Source: Aureimonas sp. AU12
Lineage (GTDB): Bacteria > Pseudomonadota > Alphaproteobacteria > Rhizobiales > Rhizobiaceae
Direction of reading: 5' to 3'
Assembly: GCF_001463705.1 (NCBI RefSeq)
Contig: NZ_BBWH01000027.1
Span: forward strand, 62,001 to 126,000
Length of the DNA stretch: 64,000 nucleotides
How positions within the stretch are numbered: the first letter of the stretch is position 1; each line of letters begins with the position of its first letter. Positions 43,184 through 51,259 of the stretch are shown piece by piece. A program made the translations under genes and the position numbers. The notes beneath the pieces are model-generated. The model saw only the letters and a list, made by a program, of their open reading frames with translations. It searched no databases and had not been told where the DNA came from.

Positions 43184-45235
43184 ATGAAGATCCGCATTGG
43201 GACGAAACTGGGTGCCGGATTTACCGGCGTTCTCCTGATGACGACGGCTGTCGGCTATTTCGGCATCCAATCGCTCTCCGACAGCAACACCCAACTGAAC
43301 CAGTTCGCGCAGCGGCCGTTCGAGCAGGTGCAGGGCCTGGGCGGGCTGTCCGCCAATCTGGAAGCGATGCGACGCTTTGCTCGCAGTACCATGTCCGAGC
43401 CGACGCCCGAGAAGAAGGCGGCTCAGATGAAGGCGTATCAGGAAGCGTGGACGCGCATGATGGCGTCGCTCGACCGGTACGAGGCCGGCGTGAAGACGCA
43501 GGATGGCAAGCTGGCGATGGCCGAGCTCCGCCCGACGGTCGTTGCGCTGCGACCCGTCACCGACAAGATCATGGCCGACGCGATGCTGGTCAATCCGAAC
43601 GCGGCGCAGGACATCCTGGCGCTCGGCGAGGGGGATCTCGCGAAGGTCCAGACGCAGCTGGAAGCTCTGCGCGCCAAGCTTCCCGCCACCGATCTGGGGC
43701 CGCAGGCCGAGCGCATCCTGTTCGAAACCGAACGCGCCATCCTGACCTCGGTTCTGGCGACACTCCGGATCGTCGTCGACGCCAACACCGACAAGATGCA
43801 GTCCGGCAACGTGAAGCTCAACGACCTGATGACGTTGGTTCGCGGCAACATCGATCGTCTTCGCGCGATCCTTCCCGCCGCCCAGCAAACGGACATCGAT
43901 CAGCTGGCGAGCGGCGTCGCGACACTCTTCGCCGACCTGCGGGCCGGCGGCGACGAAGGGCTGGCGAACCGCAGCGCACGTGTCGGCCAGGCGCTCGTCG
44001 AGAACCAGCGTCCGGCCACCGCCGCCATCGCCAAGATCGTGGACGAACTGACGGTGAGGGCGAACCAGAGGTCCGATGCGTTCCTGGCCCAGTCGGAAGC
44101 GAGCTATCTCGCCGCGCGCAACCTGTCGATCGCCCTGGTGATCGCGGCCGTGCTGACGGGCGCCGCCGTCGCGATCTGGCTCTCGCTCTCGACGGCGCGT
44201 CGCCTGCGACGCTCCGTGGCCTTCGCGGAAGCGATCGGAACCGGCGATCTGACGCGGAATGCCGACACCAAGGGGTCGGACGAGATCGCCGATCTGCAAC
44301 GCGCCATGGGCGAGATGGCAGGCAAGCTGCGCGAGATCGTGACGGATGTGCGCGCATCCGCCGATCAGGTGGCGTCGGGCTCGACGCAATCGGCGGCGAC
44401 GGCCGAGCAGCTGTCATCCGGCTCGACCGAGCAGGCCGCGGCCTCTGAAGAGGCATCCGCCGCCGTCGAGCAGATGACGGCCAATGTCCGCCAGAACTCG
44501 GACAATGCCACGCAGACCGAGAAGATCGCGGTCTCGGCGGCCGAGAACGCCGAGCGCTCGGGCATCGCGGTCGCCAAGTCGGTGGTGGCGATGCAGACGA
44601 TCGCCCAGAAGATCGCGGTGGTGCAGGAGATCGCCCGCCAGACCGATCTCTTGGCACTGAACGCCGCGATCGAGGCGGCCCGGGCCGGCCAGCACGGCAA
44701 GGGCTTCGCGGTGGTGGCATCGGAAGTGCGCAAGCTCGCCGAGCGCAGCCAGGAGGCGGCGACCGAGATCAACACCCTTTCGACGGACACGCTGGTGGTG
44801 GCCGAGGAAGCCGGGATGCTGTTGAAGCAGCTTGTTCCCGACATCCAGCGCACGGCCGAGCTCATTGCCGAGATCTCGGCGGCCTGCCGCGAGCAGTCGG
44901 TGGGCACCGAGCAGATCAACCAGGCGATCGTCCAACTCGACCAGGTGACGCAGGCCAATGCCGCGGCGGCCAACGAGATGTCGGCGACGGCCTCGCAGCT
45001 GTCCGCGGAAGCGGGCCGGCTGAGCGAGCGCGCCGGCTTCTTCCGGACCGAACCGTCGTCCACCATGCCGGCCGCCGGACCGGGTGCAACCCGCGGCGAC
45101 GCGGTCCGCGCCCTTCAGGAGCGGGTCAGCGAGTTCGGCGCCCGACACGGCTCCAGGCCGCATGCCTCGCAGGCCCATGGCCAGAAGGGCACCGACCTCG
45201 ATCTCGGCGGCCGCTTCGAGCGCATGAGCGCCTGA
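43184..45235 (+). CDS. methyl-accepting chemotaxis protein (second paralogue)
   Basis: Chemoreceptor of 683 residues, same architecture as the protein at 9611: TM1 ([15 protein letters not shown]), helical periplasmic sensor of about 270 residues, TM2, HAMP, and the signalling tip [21 protein letters not shown]. The two share the motif [13 protein letters not shown] at the membrane exit, RPFEQVQG in the sensor and a common FERMSA/FEKMSA end. Signalling domains are nearly identical while the sensor parts have diverged, which suggests duplication followed by ligand specialisation. No CheR-tether pentapeptide. Confidence 0.94.
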
Positions 45236-45733: not shown

Positions 45734-46891
45734 TCAATCCAGGATCGCATGCGGGACGAAGCGCGAGAGGTTGCAGGTGATGCGCGAGCGGTCTTCGCGG
45801 ATGCCGAGGCCGCAGGCGAGGTCCCCGACGATCCACGTGCCGAGGACCGCGAACTGGCCGGCCGCCTCGAACAGGGGCGTGAACGCCTGGATGACGGTCG
45901 GGCCGGCGCCGTAGTCGCCGTCCGTCGCTTCGGCCTTGAGGCCGTTTTCCCGGATCTCGATGTTCTCGCCTTCGCGGGAATGGAAGGGTTTGCGCACGCT
46001 GTTCGAGAGCGCGGCCACGCCCGGATCGCTTTCAAAGAAGGCGGGCACGAGGTTGGGATGGCCGGGATGGCGCTCCCAGAGGAGCGGCAGGATGCCCTTG
46101 TTCGACATGACCGCCTTCCAGGGCGGCTCCACCCATTGCGTGCCCGCCGTCGCCAGATGGCGCGCATAGGGTTCGCGCATCATGTCTTCCCAGGGGTAGA
46201 GCTTGAAGCAGCGGTCGATCGTGCGGTCCATCGGATCGACATAGCGACCGGCGGCGTCCACGCCGATCGAGTGCATGTCGATCAGGGCCGTGCGGTGGCC
46301 GGCCTGCACGGCGCAATCCATCAGATAAGCTGCCGTGCCGCGATCCTCGTCGCTGGCGGTGATGGCGGCGAAGTGGAAGATCCGGTCCGCCGGATAGGTC
46401 GCGAAGGCGGCGACAAGACTCTCCTGAATAAGGTTGAACTGGTCGGCACTCTCCGGCAACCGGCCGAGCGCGACCTGATCGACCAGCCAATCGTACTGGA
46501 AATAGGCGGCCTCGAAGACGCCGGTCGGCGTGTCGGCATTGTATTCCAGAAGTTTGGCCGGGCCTTGCCCGTCATAGGCCAGATCGAAGCGGCCATAGAG
46601 CGAACCGTCACCGGAGCGGAAAGATTGGCGGACCGTGTCGAACTGCTGGGGGGGAATGGCAAGGCGCGTCATCAGCGCCTCGGATTCCACGACCTCGGCC
46701 ACGAGGTCCCGGCACATCTCGTGCAGCACCTGCGTCGGCGCCTCGATCCGCTCCTCGATCTCCTTCATCGTGAAGCGGTAGTAGACGTCATCCAGCCAAT
46801 AGGGCTCGCCGTACATTTCGTGGAAGCCGAAGCCGACGGCCTCGGCCTTGCCCTGCCAGCCGTCGCGGGCGGGAATCGTGAGGCGCTCCAC
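45734..46891 (-). CDS. yjfC: glutathionylspermidine synthase-family ATP-grasp ligase (YjfC/YgiC-like)
   Basis: ATP-grasp amide ligase of 385 residues, homologous to the synthetase domain of glutathionylspermidine synthase but without the amidase half. Visible blocks: YGRFDLAYDGQGPAKLLEYNADTPTG (metal/substrate loop), the ATP-binding Lys region AVMSNKGILPLLWERHPGHPNLVPAFFE, and SVRKPFHSREGENI. YgiC/YjfC members are thought to join a peptide or amine to an unknown acceptor, and no physiological substrate is established. The start is a GTG at 46891, three bases after the DUF1190 stop. It is the last gene of the leftward arm of a yjf-type module. Confidence 0.9.
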   Translation of the reverse strand: MERLTIPARDGWQGKAEAVGFGFHEMYGEPYWLDDVYYRFTMKEIEERIEAPTQVLHEMCRDLVAEVVESEALMTRLAIPPQQFDTVRQSFRSGDGSLYGRFDLAYDGQGPAKLLEYNADTPTGVFEAAYFQYDWLVDQVALGRLPESADQFNLIQESLVAAFATYPADRIFHFAAITASDEDRGTAAYLMDCAVQAGHRTALIDMHSIGVDAAGRYVDPMDRTIDRCFKLYPWEDMMREPYARHLATAGTQWVEPPWKAVMSNKGILPLLWERHPGHPNLVPAFFESDPGVAALSNSVRKPFHSREGENIEIRENGLKAEATDGDYGAGPTVIQAFTPLFEAAGQFAVLGTWIVGDLACGLGIREDRSRITCNLSRFVPHAILD

Positions 46892-46894
46892 CTG

Positions 46895-47467
46895 TCAGCC
46901 GCCGAACGAGCCGCCGCGGCCGAAGGACATGCCTCCGAAGCCGCTGCGGGACACGGCGCGCGTGTTGATGTTGGCCGGGCGCGGCGTCGTGACCTGCGTC
47001 CCGATCACCGGATCGGAGCGTAGGGTCGCCCCCGAGCGGTTGGTGAAGATCGGGGTCGGTCGCGAATACGAGCCGCCGCCGACATAGGAACCGTAGGAAT
47101 TGTAGTTCGTCAGGTTCTGGACGGCGGAGGAGATCAGATAGCCGGTCATGAACGGCAGGAAGAAGCGGCCCGTTCCGGAGCCGCCTTGGTCGCGCGGCGT
47201 CTCCATGCAGCGTCCCGCGCCGTATTGCGCCTCGCAATCCGACAGGCCCCGGAACTTCGGGGCGTCGCGCAGATGCTGGCTGAGTGCCGTCTGGTATTCC
47301 GCTTCGCAGACGCCCTTGTCGAGGCCGGCCTCGATGCACTGCGTAGGCGAGGTGAACAGCGTATCGGCCGTGGTGTCGTTGCCGCAGCCCGTGAGCGCCA
47401 GACCGCTCGCCGCGATCGTGCCCAGCGCCAGGAGGGGTGGCTTGCGACCGGTGAAGCGCTTCCTCAT
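46895..47467 (-). CDS. yjfM: DUF1190 lipoprotein (YjfM/YgiB-like)
   Basis: Exported protein of 190 residues. The N-terminal signal ends in the lipobox LTGC, so it should be a lipoprotein. The body has a conserved Cys pattern (TQCIEAGLDKGVCEAEY, LSDCEAQYG, GRCME) seen in YgiB/YjfM, and the tail is Gly/Ser/Tyr-rich ending GMSFGRGGSFGG, reminiscent of low-complexity substrates. GGGAG is five bases before the ATG. In E. coli this gene pairs with the ATP-grasp ligase, making it a candidate acceptor for modification. Confidence 0.88.
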   Translation of the reverse strand: MRKRFTGRKPPLLALGTIAASGLALTGCGNDTTADTLFTSPTQCIEAGLDKGVCEAEYQTALSQHLRDAPKFRGLSDCEAQYGAGRCMETPRDQGGSGTGRFFLPFMTGYLISSAVQNLTNYNSYGSYVGGGSYSRPTPIFTNRSGATLRSDPVIGTQVTTPRPANINTRAVSRSGFGGMSFGRGGSFGG

Positions 47468-47477
47468 GACGGCTCCC

Positions 47478-47879
47478 TCAATAGGTCATGCAGGCGGCGT
47501 TCAGCATGCCGATCGTCAGGGAAATGCCCCCGGACCACACGCCTCCGGCCATCTCGCCCTGGGTGATACGCTGCGGCAGGTCGCGCATGGCGAGGCAGGC
47601 GACGCCGAAGGCGATCGCCTGGAACACCGCACCGACCAGCGCCCAGATCGCGAAATCGGTCAGCGAAACGGAATTGGCGGCCGCCGACGCGAGCGGCAGC
47701 GAAAAGCCCAGGATAGCCCCGAGAAAGGCGACCACCGCCGCCGAATTGCCCGTTCGGATCAGGCGCAGCTCGTGCTGCGGCGTCAGCGCCGAATAGGCGA
47801 CCGAGAAGGCGGCGAGAGCCGCAAGGCCGGTGGCAAAATAGGCGAGGAAGGCTGGCAGGCCCGCGACATAGCCGAACAT
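47478..47879 (-). CDS. yjfL: DUF350 membrane protein (YjfL-like)
   Basis: Small inner-membrane protein of 133 residues with four hydrophobic helices; the two halves are related in pattern, as in DUF350. Residues NSAAVVAFLGAILGFSLPLASA form the characteristic second-helix segment. Ten bases separate it from the DUF1190 gene, so they are co-transcribed. A palindrome, AAAGGATCCTTT (47885-47896), overlaps the likely ribosome site and could fold. Function unknown; it is a regular member of yjf modules. Confidence 0.87.
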   Translation of the reverse strand: MFGYVAGLPAFLAYFATGLAALAAFSVAYSALTPQHELRLIRTGNSAAVVAFLGAILGFSLPLASAAANSVSLTDFAIWALVGAVFQAIAFGVACLAMRDLPQRITQGEMAGGVWSGGISLTIGMLNAACMTY

Positions 47880-47924
47880 ATCGGAAAGGATCCTTTTGCG
47901 AACAGTCGAGACGATGAGACGCGA

Positions 47925-48593
47925 TCAGAGGCGGCGGATGTCGGCCGCCATCAGGCCGTAGCCGATGATGAACTCGACCGACCCGCCCTCCCTGGAAGCG
48001 CCACCCGCGAGATCGCGTTCGATGTTGATGAGCAGCATCTCGCGATCCTGGCCGAGCGGACGGGCGTAGAGCATGCAGGACTGGTGGATCTCGCGCCGCC
48101 TTTCGCCGTCGTCGACGGTCTCGACGAACTCCACGAGATCGGCCCGGCCCGCGCCGTCGCCCCAGAACCGGTCGAAGAGGAGGCCGTCGGCGTCATAACG
48201 GGACTGTCCGATGAGCCCGGAGGAACCGCGCCAGCGAGCCCAATCCGCCGGGCCCGCAGGCACGACGCTGTCCCAGGGTCGGTACAGGCTGACGTCCAGC
48301 AGGTCGTCGCCGGGTGCGGCCGAGGCGGACAGCACCTGCAGGATCGTGTTGTCGGCGTCGTAGTAGCGCGACAGGATCATGCCGGCGTCGAGCCGCGCTT
48401 CGCCGTAGGCTGCGACGATCAGCATGCCGCCGGGGGGCACCGGCATCGCCGTCTCGGCACCGGCGAGGTTGGCCTGGAGGCTCAGCGTGTCGATATCGAT
48501 GCCGCCGCCGATGGCCACGCCCAGAGGGCCGCGTTCCACGGGAAGTTCGCTCGCGCTCCGGTCCGATCCCCAACCAAAGATGCGTCCGATCAT
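47925..48593 (-). CDS. yjfK: DUF2491 protein (YjfK-like)
   Basis: Soluble protein of 222 residues beginning MIGRIFGWG. It matches the DUF2491/YjfK family, seen as LQVLSA, LYRPWDSVVPAGPADWARW and an ...EREMLLINIERD-type end. ATG at 48593 is used because the open frame upstream is shared with the divergent gene. First gene of the leftward arm; the divergent start of the YjfI-like gene is only 66 bases away, so both arms share a control region. No catalytic motif is evident. Confidence 0.85.
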   Translation of the reverse strand: MIGRIFGWGSDRSASELPVERGPLGVAIGGGIDIDTLSLQANLAGAETAMPVPPGGMLIVAAYGEARLDAGMILSRYYDADNTILQVLSASAAPGDDLLDVSLYRPWDSVVPAGPADWARWRGSSGLIGQSRYDADGLLFDRFWGDGAGRADLVEFVETVDDGERRREIHQSCMLYARPLGQDREMLLINIERDLAGGASREGGSVEFIIGYGLMAADIRRL

Positions 48594-48659
48594 TGCTTCG
48601 TGCCTTGTCCCGCTCCGCACACTCAGTATGACATAACGGCCACCCGGTGAAGGCGTGGC

Positions 48660-49112
48660 GTGAAGTCGGAATGGAGTTCGCAAGACGTGGCCAACTGGAA
48701 CCTCGCATCCCTGACGGAACTCTTCGCAGCCGATCCCCCCGCCCTCGGCGACGTGGATGTCTCGATCGAAGGCGATGTGCTTCGCGTGACCCTGAAGGAG
48801 AGGGGCCATCTCGACGTCTTCGTCGTGGCCGCCGGCGAGCACATCCTCGCCAGCGTCCTGCTGGCGCCCGCCGACAGCGTGCCGAACCGCGCGGCCTTCG
48901 AGCGCCTCGCCCTCAAGACCCACAAGCTCGTTCCGCTCTCCACCTTCGGCATCTCGACCGTGAACGACGAGGAATGGTACGAGCTGTTCGGCTCCCTGTC
49001 GGCGCGCTCGTCGGCCGATCTGGTGGTCGAGGAAGTGGCCGTCCTGGCCGGCAATGCGGCGGATGCCGCGGCCTTCATGACGGAGTGGCGCCAGAAGGAG
49101 ATCGCGACGTGA
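48660..49112 (+). CDS. yjfI: DUF2170 protein (YjfI-like)
   Basis: Soluble protein of 150 residues of the YjfI/DUF2170 family. The start is a GTG (48660) with GAAGG six bases upstream; the predicted N-terminus is MKSEWSSQDVANWNLASL. Conserved parts include DVFVVAAGEHILASVLLAP and FALKTHKLVPLSTFGI-like KTHKLVPLSTFGI. It overlaps the PspA-family gene (GTGA), so the two are translated together. Likely a partner or regulator of the PspA protein, by analogy with yjfI-yjfJ in E. coli. Confidence 0.85.
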   Translation: MKSEWSSQDVANWNLASLTELFAADPPALGDVDVSIEGDVLRVTLKERGHLDVFVVAAGEHILASVLLAPADSVPNRAAFERLALKTHKLVPLSTFGISTVNDEEWYELFGSLSARSSADLVVEEVAVLAGNAADAAAFMTEWRQKEIAT

Positions 49113-49858
49113 GCGTTTGGGGCAAGCTGTTTTCCGCCGTGCGCGGCGGCATCAACGAGGCGGGCGAAAGCGTGGCGGACGCGCAGGCCCTACGCACGCT
49201 CGACCAGGAGATCCGCGACGCCGACACGGCGCTGCGCCAGGCGCGCGGCGACCTCGCCGGCATCATGGCCACGGCCAAGACGCTCGGACGCCGTGTCGAT
49301 GAGGCGCGGGCGAAGGATCAGAAGGATCTGGAATCGGCCCGGGCCGCGATGGCGGCCGGGCGCGAGGATCTGGCGCGCCAGCTCGCCGCGCGCATGTCGC
49401 AGAACCGCGCCGACCTGACGCGTGACGAAGCGGAGCTGCAGCGCCTTCAGGGCGCGCAGGCGCAGATGCTGCGTGCCGTGCAGGATACCGAAACGCGTAT
49501 CCAGACGATGCGACGCGAGGTGGAGAGCGTGAAGGCCAACGAATCCCTTCTCAAGGCGCAGTCGGCGATCGCCTCCAGCCATGCCGGCGTCAACTCGCGC
49601 CTCGGCAGTGCCATGGACTCCCTGGAGCGGGTCAAGAAACGGCAGGAAGCGCTCGCCGGGCGCATCGAAGCCGGCGCGGAACTCCAGGCCCTCGAAAGCG
49701 GCTCGTCGCTCGATCAGGCGCTTCTGGAAGCAGGGATCGGCGGCAATCGCTCGTCCTCCAACGACATCTTCGCCGAGATCCTGCGCACGGAGAAGAGCCA
49801 GGACACCCTGCCGCCGGCACCGGCGGTTTCGAGCATCGGCTACGATCCGAAATCCTGA
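49109..49858 (+). CDS. yjfJ: PspA/IM30 (ESCRT-III-like) family protein (YjfJ-like)
   Basis: Membrane-remodelling protein of 249 residues, almost entirely coiled coil from residue 25 to 185. It starts VSVWGKLFSAVRGGINEAGES, the amphipathic helix that binds stressed membranes in PspA/Vipp1 proteins. The GTG at 49109 overlaps the stop of the YjfI-like gene and has GAAGGAG nine bases before it. C-terminal extension (SSSNDIFAEILRTEK...) beyond the helical core is specific to the YjfJ branch. There is no PspF or PspBC, so it is not a classical psp operon. Confidence 0.9.
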   Translation: MSVWGKLFSAVRGGINEAGESVADAQALRTLDQEIRDADTALRQARGDLAGIMATAKTLGRRVDEARAKDQKDLESARAAMAAGREDLARQLAARMSQNRADLTRDEAELQRLQGAQAQMLRAVQDTETRIQTMRREVESVKANESLLKAQSAIASSHAGVNSRLGSAMDSLERVKKRQEALAGRIEAGAELQALESGSSLDQALLEAGIGGNRSSSNDIFAEILRTEKSQDTLPPAPAVSSIGYDPKS

Positions 49859-50104: not shown

Positions 50105-51259
50105 TCAGGCGCGGCGGGCCTGCGGGCCGTGTCCTTCGCCCGTTTCGCTGTTGCCGGCATGCAGGATGCATCGGCTCTTGCCGGCAGCCTTGGCGGCGTA
50201 GAGCGCCTCGTCGGCAAGGACCATCATCGTCTTCAGATCCGCTGCCGGATCGCCGCGCGCGGCGCCGATGCTGACGCCGATGCGGGCGAGGAGCGTCGGC
50301 TCGAACTGGTAGGGCGTGCCGATCGACACGATCAATCGGGCGCCCAGACCGACGATCGCCTCGGCGTCGCTGTCGTCGCACAGGACGAGGAATTCGTCGC
50401 CGCCCAGGCGACAGGCGACGGCATGCGGTCCGATCGTCGCGGTGAGGCGCTGCCCGACCTGCTGGAGAACGACATCCCCTGCGTGGTGCCCGAGCGTGTC
50501 GTTCACCTGCTTGAAGCCGTCGAGGTCGAGATAGAGGAGCGCCGGTCGCGTGCCCCGGGCCGTCAGGCGGTCGAAGGCGCCTTCCAGGCCCCGGCGGTTC
50601 AGGAGACCGGTCAGCGGGTCTCGGAGCGAATGGGTCCGGCTCTCGATCTCGGCGGTGATGGCGCGCACTGTGACGCGCCGATGCTGCTCGATCATCGAGA
50701 TGTTCATCAGCACGAACATCACCCCCTGACAGAGGATGAGGGGGATGAACTCGGGGTAGAGAAAGCCGAAGCTGGCCTTGAAACTGAGGTCGATGAGAAG
50801 GACCTGCGTCATCGCATAGCGCGGCGCCGCGAAGTTGCGCCCGATGATGCTGCCGATGGCCGCCAGGCTCGAAGCGAGTACGATGATCGTCATAGGGATG
50901 TCGCGGGACAGGACCACGACGACGATCGTCACGGCCTGCGTCAGGGCCCAGGCGAGGCCGACCGCAAAGAACGGACCGGTGCGCACTCCTGGCTTGCGCA
51001 TGGCCGCAAGCCGGGCGGCTAGCAGCAGAACTTCGACGGCGGCGATGGCGAGGAAGACGGAATGGCCGATCCGATAGAAGGCGAGGAGCACGACGGCGAC
51101 CGCGTTGATCGCTCCCACCACGAACGGCTTGGGGGAGCCGAAGAATATGGCGCCGAGCCGCTTGCGCACCTCGTTCGGCAGGGTCGGATCTATCGACGCG
51201 AGCCAGCGCAACGGCGCCAGGCGAGGTGCGACGTATGTCGAGGATCCGTCCATTCCCAT
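50105..51259 (-). CDS. membrane-bound diguanylate cyclase (GGDEF)
   Basis: Inner-membrane protein of 384 residues: about six hydrophobic helices (residues 50-200) followed by a GGDEF domain. The active-site motif is intact (CRLGGDEFLVL), as are SLRDPLTGLLNRRG and DLDGFKQVNDTLGHHAGD, so it should make c-di-GMP. No recognised sensory family in the membrane part. It converges on the PspA-family gene; the small gene at 51793 and another cyclase lie behind it on the opposite strand. Confidence 0.92.
   Translation of the reverse strand: MGMDGSSTYVAPRLAPLRWLASIDPTLPNEVRKRLGAIFFGSPKPFVVGAINAVAVVLLAFYRIGHSVFLAIAAVEVLLLAARLAAMRKPGVRTGPFFAVGLAWALTQAVTIVVVVLSRDIPMTIIVLASSLAAIGSIIGRNFAAPRYAMTQVLLIDLSFKASFGFLYPEFIPLILCQGVMFVLMNISMIEQHRRVTVRAITAEIESRTHSLRDPLTGLLNRRGLEGAFDRLTARGTRPALLYLDLDGFKQVNDTLGHHAGDVVLQQVGQRLTATIGPHAVACRLGGDEFLVLCDDSDAEAIVGLGARLIVSIGTPYQFEPTLLARIGVSIGAARGDPAADLKTMMVLADEALYAAKAAGKSRCILHAGNSETGEGHGPQARRA

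What the first reader, a model, noticed from the sequence alone, without database searches (positions are those of the whole stretch)
45734..49858. yjfIJKLMC-equivalent module split into two divergent arms around PspA
All six families of the E. coli yjf operon are present: DUF2170, PspA (rightward), and DUF2491, DUF350, DUF1190, ATP-grasp ligase (leftward). Only 66 bases separate the two arms. The conserved set of a PspA/ESCRT-III protein, a membrane DUF350 protein, a Cys-rich lipoprotein with Gly/Ser tail and a glutathionylspermidine-synthase-like ligase suggests an envelope-stress or surface peptide-modification system whose chemistry has not been established. The lipoprotein is the obvious acceptor candidate.
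Basis: partly seen in the sequence, partly recalled or inferred. Interest (0 to 1): 0.75.

Follow-up and report, generated by a model that had tools for sequence, protein, structure and literature searches.

The report
Polyamine ligase with tailed partner protein
This is a known bacterial membrane-stress gene set, and comparison with about 200 relatives shows that the protein made next to its polyamine ligase nearly always has the same special tail end, which is probably where the ligase attaches a polyamine.

Summary
In detail: all six yjfIJKLMC families lie where stated, in two divergent arms 66 bases apart. The host is Aureimonas-like. The gene set is known (Ravi 2024, passages). The split is ordinary: 33 of 54 complete loci are divergent at the same DUF2491|DUF2170 junction. 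'Chemistry not established' is out of date: YgiC and YjfC are called peptide-spermidine ligases (RefSeq; a 2023 title seen only in references).

New here is the probable substrate. All 174 DUF1190 proteins found beside such a ligase carry a GGFG-type tail motif (relaxed after exceptions; 161 strict) and end in G, S, T or A (123 in Gly-Gly). 24 of 31 ligase loci without recognised DUF1190 have another protein with this tail nearby. Eleven amidase-fused glutathionylspermidine synthetase loci have no such neighbour, and 6 of 8 DUF1190 loci without a ligase lack the motif.

Best reading: the ligase joins a polyamine, here probably homospermidine, to the tail's C-terminal carboxylate. No modification has been measured, and a structure-prediction test of docking was uninformative.

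The parts
45734..46891 (-). ATP-grasp ligase, GSP_synth family, YgiC/YjfC type, 385 aa, no amidase domain
   Evidence: Pfam PF03738 465 bits; 46% identical to E. coli YjfC and to YgiC; the profile of its family matches 7uk8 and 7uk6 at E below 1e-200
46895..47467 (-). DUF1190 protein, 190 aa, putative lipoprotein and proposed acceptor
   Evidence: Pfam PF06693 101 bits
47384..47395 (-). lipobox LTGC of the DUF1190 protein (residues 25-28)
   Evidence: read from the sequence; degenerate in one relative (L021)
46934..46948 (-). tail motif RSGFG (residues 174-178)
   Evidence: Gly-Phe invariant in 35 aligned DUF1190; motif statistics
46898..46903 (-). C-terminal Gly-Gly (residues 189-190), proposed attachment site
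   Evidence: GG in 123 of 174 ligase-linked DUF1190, last residue G/S/T/A in 174 of 174
47478..47879 (-). DUF350 (YjfL-type) membrane protein
   Evidence: Pfam PF03994 117 bits
47925..48593 (-). DUF2491 (YjfK-type) protein
   Evidence: Pfam PF10679 151 bits
48604..48632 (+). promoter-like CTTGTC-N17-TATGAC for the right arm
   Evidence: read by eye in the 66-base gap; a similar pair with 17-base spacing is seen in relatives G001 and G008, diverged in G010 (sequences); no scan was run
48660..49112 (+). DUF2170 (YjfI/BacA-type, CesT/Tir-like) protein
   Evidence: Pfam PF09938 126 bits
49109..49858 (+). PspA/IM30 (YjfJ-type) protein
   Evidence: Pfam PF04012 135 bits; 44-bit second PspA elsewhere in the genome

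Best explanation
The locus is a yjfIJKLMC-type module whose core is an enzyme-substrate pair: a cytoplasmic ATP-grasp ligase and a tailed envelope protein (DUF1190). The ligase recognises the GGFG-type motif of the tail, activates the tail's C-terminal carboxylate (usually of Gly-Gly) with ATP, and joins a polyamine to it by an amide bond, as glutathionylspermidine synthetase does with the C-terminal Gly of glutathione. In this organism the polyamine is probably homospermidine. The polycationic cap would change how the tail binds anionic lipids or surfaces, and DUF350, DUF2491, DUF2170 and PspA would tie this to membrane stress. Shown here: gene content, family membership, the link between ligase and tail, the tail's pattern, and polyamine genes. 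Known from others (title, database names): peptide-spermidine ligase activity of YgiC and YjfC. Inferred: that the tail is the substrate, the site, the amine, the timing relative to export, and the effect.
For: All 174 ligase-linked DUF1190 carry the relaxed motif (161 the strict one) and end in G/S/T/A; GG in 123, against a shuffle mean of 7.4 and maximum of 17. In 51 DUF1190 from genomes fetched after the motif was written down, 43 carry it and 50 end in G, S or T; GG in 23 against a shuffle mean of 2.3. 23 of 32 clusters (50% identity, tail left out) contain a GG ending. Of 31 ligase loci without recognised DUF1190, 24 have a strict-motif tailed ORF within 1.5 kb, against 15 of 11583 ORFs farther away. 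Eleven amidase-fused ligase loci have none adjacent. 6 of 8 DUF1190 loci without ligase lack the motif. GG persists in 16 of 18 DUF1190 genes not directly before a ligase, so it is not a ribosome-binding site. 107 of 174 have no acidic residue in the last 30, which leaves the C-terminus as the carboxylate common to all. Ligase family and fold. Homospermidine synthase present, AdoMet decarboxylase not found.
Against: No modification has been seen by anyone in what I could read. The terminal residue is not always Gly: 51 of 174 end otherwise than GG, and in the later class set GG is a minority, 23 of 51. Eight of those 51 miss the motif as first written, so it was relaxed afterwards. L210's upstream protein has GGFG but ends in Glu. 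Two DUF1190 loci without ligase carry the motif (G478, G568); I attribute this to contig ends, but one search found no ligase in these genomes. Four of the six motif-less orphans are weak DUF1190 matches. The tailed protein looks exported while the ligase is cytoplasmic. The AlphaFold read-through chain left the tail at pLDDT 26-33, so docking is not supported. Sequences are related, so counts are not independent events.
Confidence: 0.5

Rival explanations
1. The ligase makes a small soluble peptide-polyamine conjugate or modifies other peptides; the tailed protein is a sensor or binder of the product or of metal, as Ravi 2024 suggests with 'metal-chelating lipoprotein'.
For: The relatives GspSA and trypanothione synthetase work on glutathione (fold and sequence matches). 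Ravi 2024 calls DUF1190 metal-chelating and proposes monitoring of polyamine concentration or aminopropylation (passages).
Against: A sensor would not need a conserved small C-terminal residue plus motif shared by otherwise different partners. GspSA-type loci have no tailed neighbour. A table in PMC12506659 says YgiC does not have the glutathionylspermidine activity, citing Sui 2012 (passage).
Confidence: 0.25
2. The tail is a docking or assembly element read by something else (DUF350, PspA, a protease or the surface), and it travels with the ligase only because the genes belong to one stress pathway.
For: Gly/Ser/Arg tails are common in surface proteins; DUF350 is in many of the loci (133 of 205 at the threshold); the tail is strongly basic (net charge of the last 60 residues +3 or more in all 122 of the first set).
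Against: In ygiBC-type loci the ligase and the tailed protein stand without DUF350 and PspA in the fetched stretch, yet the tail is the same. The preference is for the extreme C-terminus.
Confidence: 0.17
3. The ligase joins the tail's C-terminal Gly to an amine of a macromolecule (protein lysine, or phosphatidylethanolamine as in Atg8 lipidation) and not to a free polyamine.
For: The C-terminal GG resembles that of ubiquitin-like tags; the module includes an ESCRT-III-like PspA.
Against: YgiC and YjfC are reported as spermidine ligases (titles and database names). No other conjugation enzyme is in the window's locus.
Confidence: 0.06
4. The terminal GG codons are conserved as a ribosome-binding site for the ligase gene that follows.
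For: 156 of 174 DUF1190 genes lie directly before the ligase.
Against: 16 of 18 DUF1190 genes not before a ligase also end GG; before a ligase the codons of terminal GG are GGC or GGT in 185 of 214, not GGA/GGG.
Confidence: 0.02

Closest known systems
E. coli yjfIJKLMC operon
   Same: All six families; tailed DUF1190 ending GG
   Different: One direction in E. coli, two arms here; the amine is probably homospermidine here
E. coli ygiBC (beside tolC)
   Same: Ligase next to a DUF1190 ending GG
   Different: No DUF350, DUF2491, DUF2170 or PspA in the stretch read
Third CesT/Tir-PspA operon group of Ravi 2024 (PMC11237479, passages)
   Same: DUF2170-PspA dyad with GSP-like ligase, DUF350, DUF1190, DUF2491
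   Different: The window has no K+ channel gene in the 66-base gap; one is there in Rhizobium L127
Glutathionylspermidine synthetase/amidase (GspSA)
   Same: Same ATP-grasp ligase fold
   Different: GspSA has an amidase domain; in 11 such loci no tailed neighbour
SUMO-spermidine conjugation (PMC12270671, abstract and passages)
   Same: Spermidine on a C-terminal Gly-Gly carboxylate
   Different: Uses E1/E2 in eukaryotes; here one ATP-grasp ligase is proposed
Pseudomonas aeruginosa bac operon (PMC10948618, passages)
   Same: DUF2170 (BacA) plus PspA (BacB)
   Different: The passages seen name no ligase or DUF1190; a sigma54 site is proposed there

Membership tests
yjfIJKLMC-type module | DUF2170, PspA, DUF2491, DUF350, DUF1190 and GSP_synth genes in one locus | tested here: met
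   E. coli reference
yjfIJKLMC-type module | one-direction gene order as in E. coli (not treated as defining) | tested here: not met
   divergent; so are 33 of 54 complete loci
YgiC/YjfC-type peptide-spermidine ligase | full-length GSP_synth without amidase, close to YgiC/YjfC | tested here: met
   385 aa, Pfam profile 1-371 of 371; 46% identity to each; best PDB matches are YgiC and YjfC
YgiC/YjfC-type peptide-spermidine ligase | ATP-dependent peptide-polyamine ligation | not testable with these tools
   needs an assay
Bifunctional glutathionylspermidine synthetase/amidase | N-terminal amidase domain fused to the ligase | tested here: not met
   only GSP_synth in the window protein; 103 bits against a cut-off of 882 for the bifunctional model
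Classical Psp system (PspF, PspB, PspC) | pspB, pspC or pspF beside pspA | tested here: not met
   none among the eight proteins scanned between 43184 and 51259
Ubiquitin-like conjugation | beta-grasp tag protein | tested here: inconclusive
   DUF1190 model is mostly helical and disordered but has mean pLDDT 60; no PDB match at E 0.001
Ubiquitin-like conjugation | E1/E2-type enzymes | not tested
   only the locus was scanned, not the genome

The most novel reading that the evidence does not exclude
The tail is a transferable C-terminal conjugation tag: a protein that carries the GGFG-type motif, a Ser/Gly/Arg linker and a small last residue, usually Gly-Gly, is capped with a polyamine by the ligase beside it. 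This would be a dedicated bacterial system for polyamine capping of protein C-termini, spread through Pseudomonadota and in part of its range tied to PspA membrane stress; in Aureimonas it would use homospermidine.
Probability: 0.4. Interest if true: 0.85.

Novelty: new member of a known kind. Interest (0 to 1): 0.6.

Why it matters
What YgiC and YjfC act on in the cell is not named in the papers I could read. The tail pattern turns that into one mass-spectrometry test in E. coli K-12. It also suggests how an effect could be missed: a C-terminal affinity tag on YgiB or YjfM would block the proposed site. If true, bacteria have a dedicated protein C-terminal polyamination system, like SUMO-spermidine in outcome, linked to an ESCRT-III-like stress protein. 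If false, the tail still needs an explanation, since it follows the ligase across partner proteins that otherwise differ.

Tried and rejected
Ribosome-binding-site origin of the terminal GG: rejected. The split arms as something special: rejected. My first idea of the host (Sphingomonadales, note) was wrong: L124, titled uncultured Aureimonas, is on a contig of the same length as that of same-genus genome G001 (note).

AlphaFold test of tail docking on a read-through ligase-DUF1190 chain: ligase blocks mostly 86-98, tail blocks 26-33, no information on docking. An earlier alignment for it (A3) put DUF1190 rows on the ligase and was dropped. AlphaFold of the window DUF1190: mean pLDDT 60, only residues about 41-90 good; Foldseek found nothing at E 0.001. 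Cytoplasmic tail through a second membrane helix: considered because the tail is basic, but partners without DUF1190, as read by eye, show mainly one N-terminal hydrophobic stretch, so I claim no topology. The profiles rebuilt gave spurious extra DUF2170 hits; the seed DUF2170 profile was put back, and the order counts use the best hit per family at E below 1e-8.

Dropped before counts: loci with identical ligase sequence; ligase matches of 300 residues or fewer; DUF1190 hits above E 1e-8 or 1e-6. Of the 27 'other' tailed partners, which were chosen by the motif itself, L210's pick looks spurious (its small upstream ORF ends in Glu), and in L196, L153, L167 and L207 the pick is a second tailed ORF beside the one listed.
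Full report
WHAT IS THERE. The neighbours are a chemotaxis receptor (43184-45235, +) and a GGDEF protein (50105-51259, -). The genome has one further, weaker PspA match. The host is Aureimonas-like: same-genus genome G001 has its match on a contig of the length of NZ_CAJYIU010000011.1 (L124), titled uncultured Aureimonas. In the genus the module is patchy: 8 of 21 genomes, own included, have DUF1190.

THE GENE SET IS KNOWN. E. coli has it as yjfIJKLMC and a two-gene form, ygiBC. Ravi 2024 (PMC11237479; passages) lists it as the third CesT/Tir-PspA operon group, with a potassium channel, and suggests a metal-chelating lipoprotein and polyamine monitoring. A K+ channel gene (Ion_trans_2 plus TrkA_N) lies between DUF2491 and DUF2170 in L127; similar open frames were read by eye in L125, L306 and L084, and a partial one in L089. 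The window has only 66 bases there, and the L127 channel found no match in the window's genome (a search without positive control). E. coli evolved at high temperature raises yjfIJKL (PMC12492005; passages). YgiC and YjfC are called peptide--spermidine ligase in RefSeq and in the title of Pederick 2023 (reference lists and a citing sentence; the paper is not held).

ARRANGEMENT. Of 205 loci with distinct ligase sequences, 54 also carry DUF2170, PspA and DUF2491: 24 in the window's order, 21 in the E. coli order, and 9 with DUF1190-DUF350-DUF2491 leftward and DUF2170-PspA-ligase rightward. Because 27 of the 205 stretches are not over 6 kb, 54 is a lower bound. The cut always falls between DUF2491 and DUF2170. 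The 33 divergent loci are from the window's class, the 21 others from outside it (kinship; titles). Other loci show DUF350 with ligase and partner, or ligase and partner alone.

THE TAIL. The DUF1190 proteins of E. coli and of the window's relatives aligned first all end in Gly-Gly. In the first large set (122 unique ligase-linked DUF1190) 99 end GG, 13 GS, 9 SS and 1 GT; shuffling the last 30 residues gives 4.9 GG on average, at most 12. Grouped at 50% identity with the last 12 residues left out they form 32 clusters, 23 of which contain a GG ending. In one search I wrote down a motif, [RK]x[GN][FYW][GKTSQ], starting 6 to 41 residues (median 17) from the end: 115 of 122 have it, and the other 7 have GGFG without the basic residue in that place. 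I then fetched more genomes of the class. Of 51 ligase-linked DUF1190 new in that set, 43 have the motif as written; the 8 others vary it (for example RGGLG, RSGGFG, AGGFG). 50 end in G, S or T and one in A. GG is less common here, 23 of 51, but above shuffles (mean 2.3, max 9). These genomes are from the class of many first-set ones, so they are new but not unrelated. With the motif relaxed after the exceptions, all 174 of the combined set have it (161 the strict form); 123 end GG and all end in G, S, T or A, against shuffle means of 7.4 and 104.4 (maxima 17 and 127). In 35 aligned DUF1190 sequences the Gly-Phe of the motif is as invariant as the four core cysteines.

CONTROLS. (a) Eight genomes have a DUF1190 locus without ligase in it. 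Six lack the motif (G032, G127, G025, G206, G652, G533). Two have it (G478, G568); one search finds no ligase in those genomes, but their stretches stop at what look like contig ends before the place where the ligase would be, which is my inference. G025, G206, G652 and G533 are weak family matches, so distance may play a part; G032 is a strong one, G127 a fair one. G127, G652 and G533 have no ligase match anywhere; for G032 and G025 only the locus was looked at; G206 has a ligase elsewhere with a tailed neighbour of its own. (b) Eleven amidase-fused ligase loci have no tailed neighbour; the single strict-motif ORF lies 4 kb off. (c) In 11583 ORFs of the ligase loci more than 1.5 kb from the ligase, 15 meet the strict and 75 the relaxed rule. 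(d) The terminal GG is not a ribosome-binding site: 16 of 18 DUF1190 genes not placed before a ligase end GG, and before a ligase the codons are GGC or GGT in 185 of 214.

PARTNERS WITHOUT DUF1190. Thirty-one ligase loci gave no DUF1190 hit at the threshold. In 24 a strict-motif tailed ORF lies within 1.5 kb on the ligase's strand, for example in Bradyrhizobium L142 and L145, in L154, L147, and in G098, G102 and G179. Of the other seven, L208, L219 and L155 have a directly upstream ORF with GGFG and a Gly or Ser end but no basic residue before it; L223 and L222 have a tailed ORF 2.3 and 5.2 kb off; L210's ends in Glu; L220 has none, but its genome has a DUF1190 beside a second ligase. Some loci have two tailed ORFs (L196, L153, L167, L207). 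Read by eye, many of these partners have an N-terminal hydrophobic stretch. Of four tested, three have a sub-threshold Pfam DUF1190 match, to the C-terminal part of the model, and one has none. They may be distant, shortened DUF1190 relatives; what is kept is the tail.

POLYAMINE. The window's genome has homospermidine synthase (L308, 4plp at E 1e-239). No AdoMet decarboxylase was found. There is one weak spermidine-synthase-like match, 27.9 bits, over Pfam's cut-off but far below the NCBIfam cut-offs, and no carboxynorspermidine decarboxylase over its cut-off. Homospermidine is the likelier amine (inference).

HOW IT MOST LIKELY WORKS. From established knowledge of the family: ATP activation of a carboxylate and attack by an amine. 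The tail's C-terminus is the one carboxylate present in every partner; 107 of 174 have no acidic residue in the last 30. GGFG would be the docking motif. A eukaryotic parallel is spermidine on the LGG terminus of SUMO (PMC12270671; abstract and passages). Open: how a cytoplasmic ligase reaches the tail of what looks like an exported protein, and what the cap does. I found no paper naming the DUF1190 tail as substrate in the held library; the Pederick, Sui, Li 2019 and Iyer 2009 papers, which may discuss it, are not held.

VERDICT. A known gene set, correctly seen. Its split is ordinary. The acceptor guess is made sharper: the C-terminus of a conserved tail. The remaining doubt is experimental.

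Noticed in passing
L127:4198-5289; open frames in the DUF2491|DUF2170 gap of L125, L306, L084, L089: A K+ channel gene (Ion_trans_2 plus TrkA_N in L127) sits in the gap between the two arms in some relatives; the window has only 66 bases there.
   Followed up: partly
L196, L153, L167, L207, beside the ligase: A second short, Gly- or His/Gly-rich ORF with a GGFG-type tail lies next to the ligase, so some loci may have two substrates.
   Followed up: no
L210 (G180), small ORF directly upstream of the ligase: It has SRGGFGG but ends in GGGE, an exception to the small last residue.
   Followed up: no
L090 (G277:C160): A DUF1190 gene ending TGGG lies beside a more distant GSP_synth (4.9e-79) than the others, while the genome's typical ligase is on another contig without a tailed neighbour.
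   Followed up: no
L308 (G000:C21): Homospermidine synthase, with no AdoMet decarboxylase found in the genome.
   Followed up: partly
window 43184-45235 and 50105-51259: The module is flanked by a chemotaxis receptor and a GGDEF diguanylate cyclase.
   Followed up: no
E. coli YgiB: Listed as increased in outer-membrane vesicles of a tolA mutant in PMC7973035 (passage).
   Followed up: no
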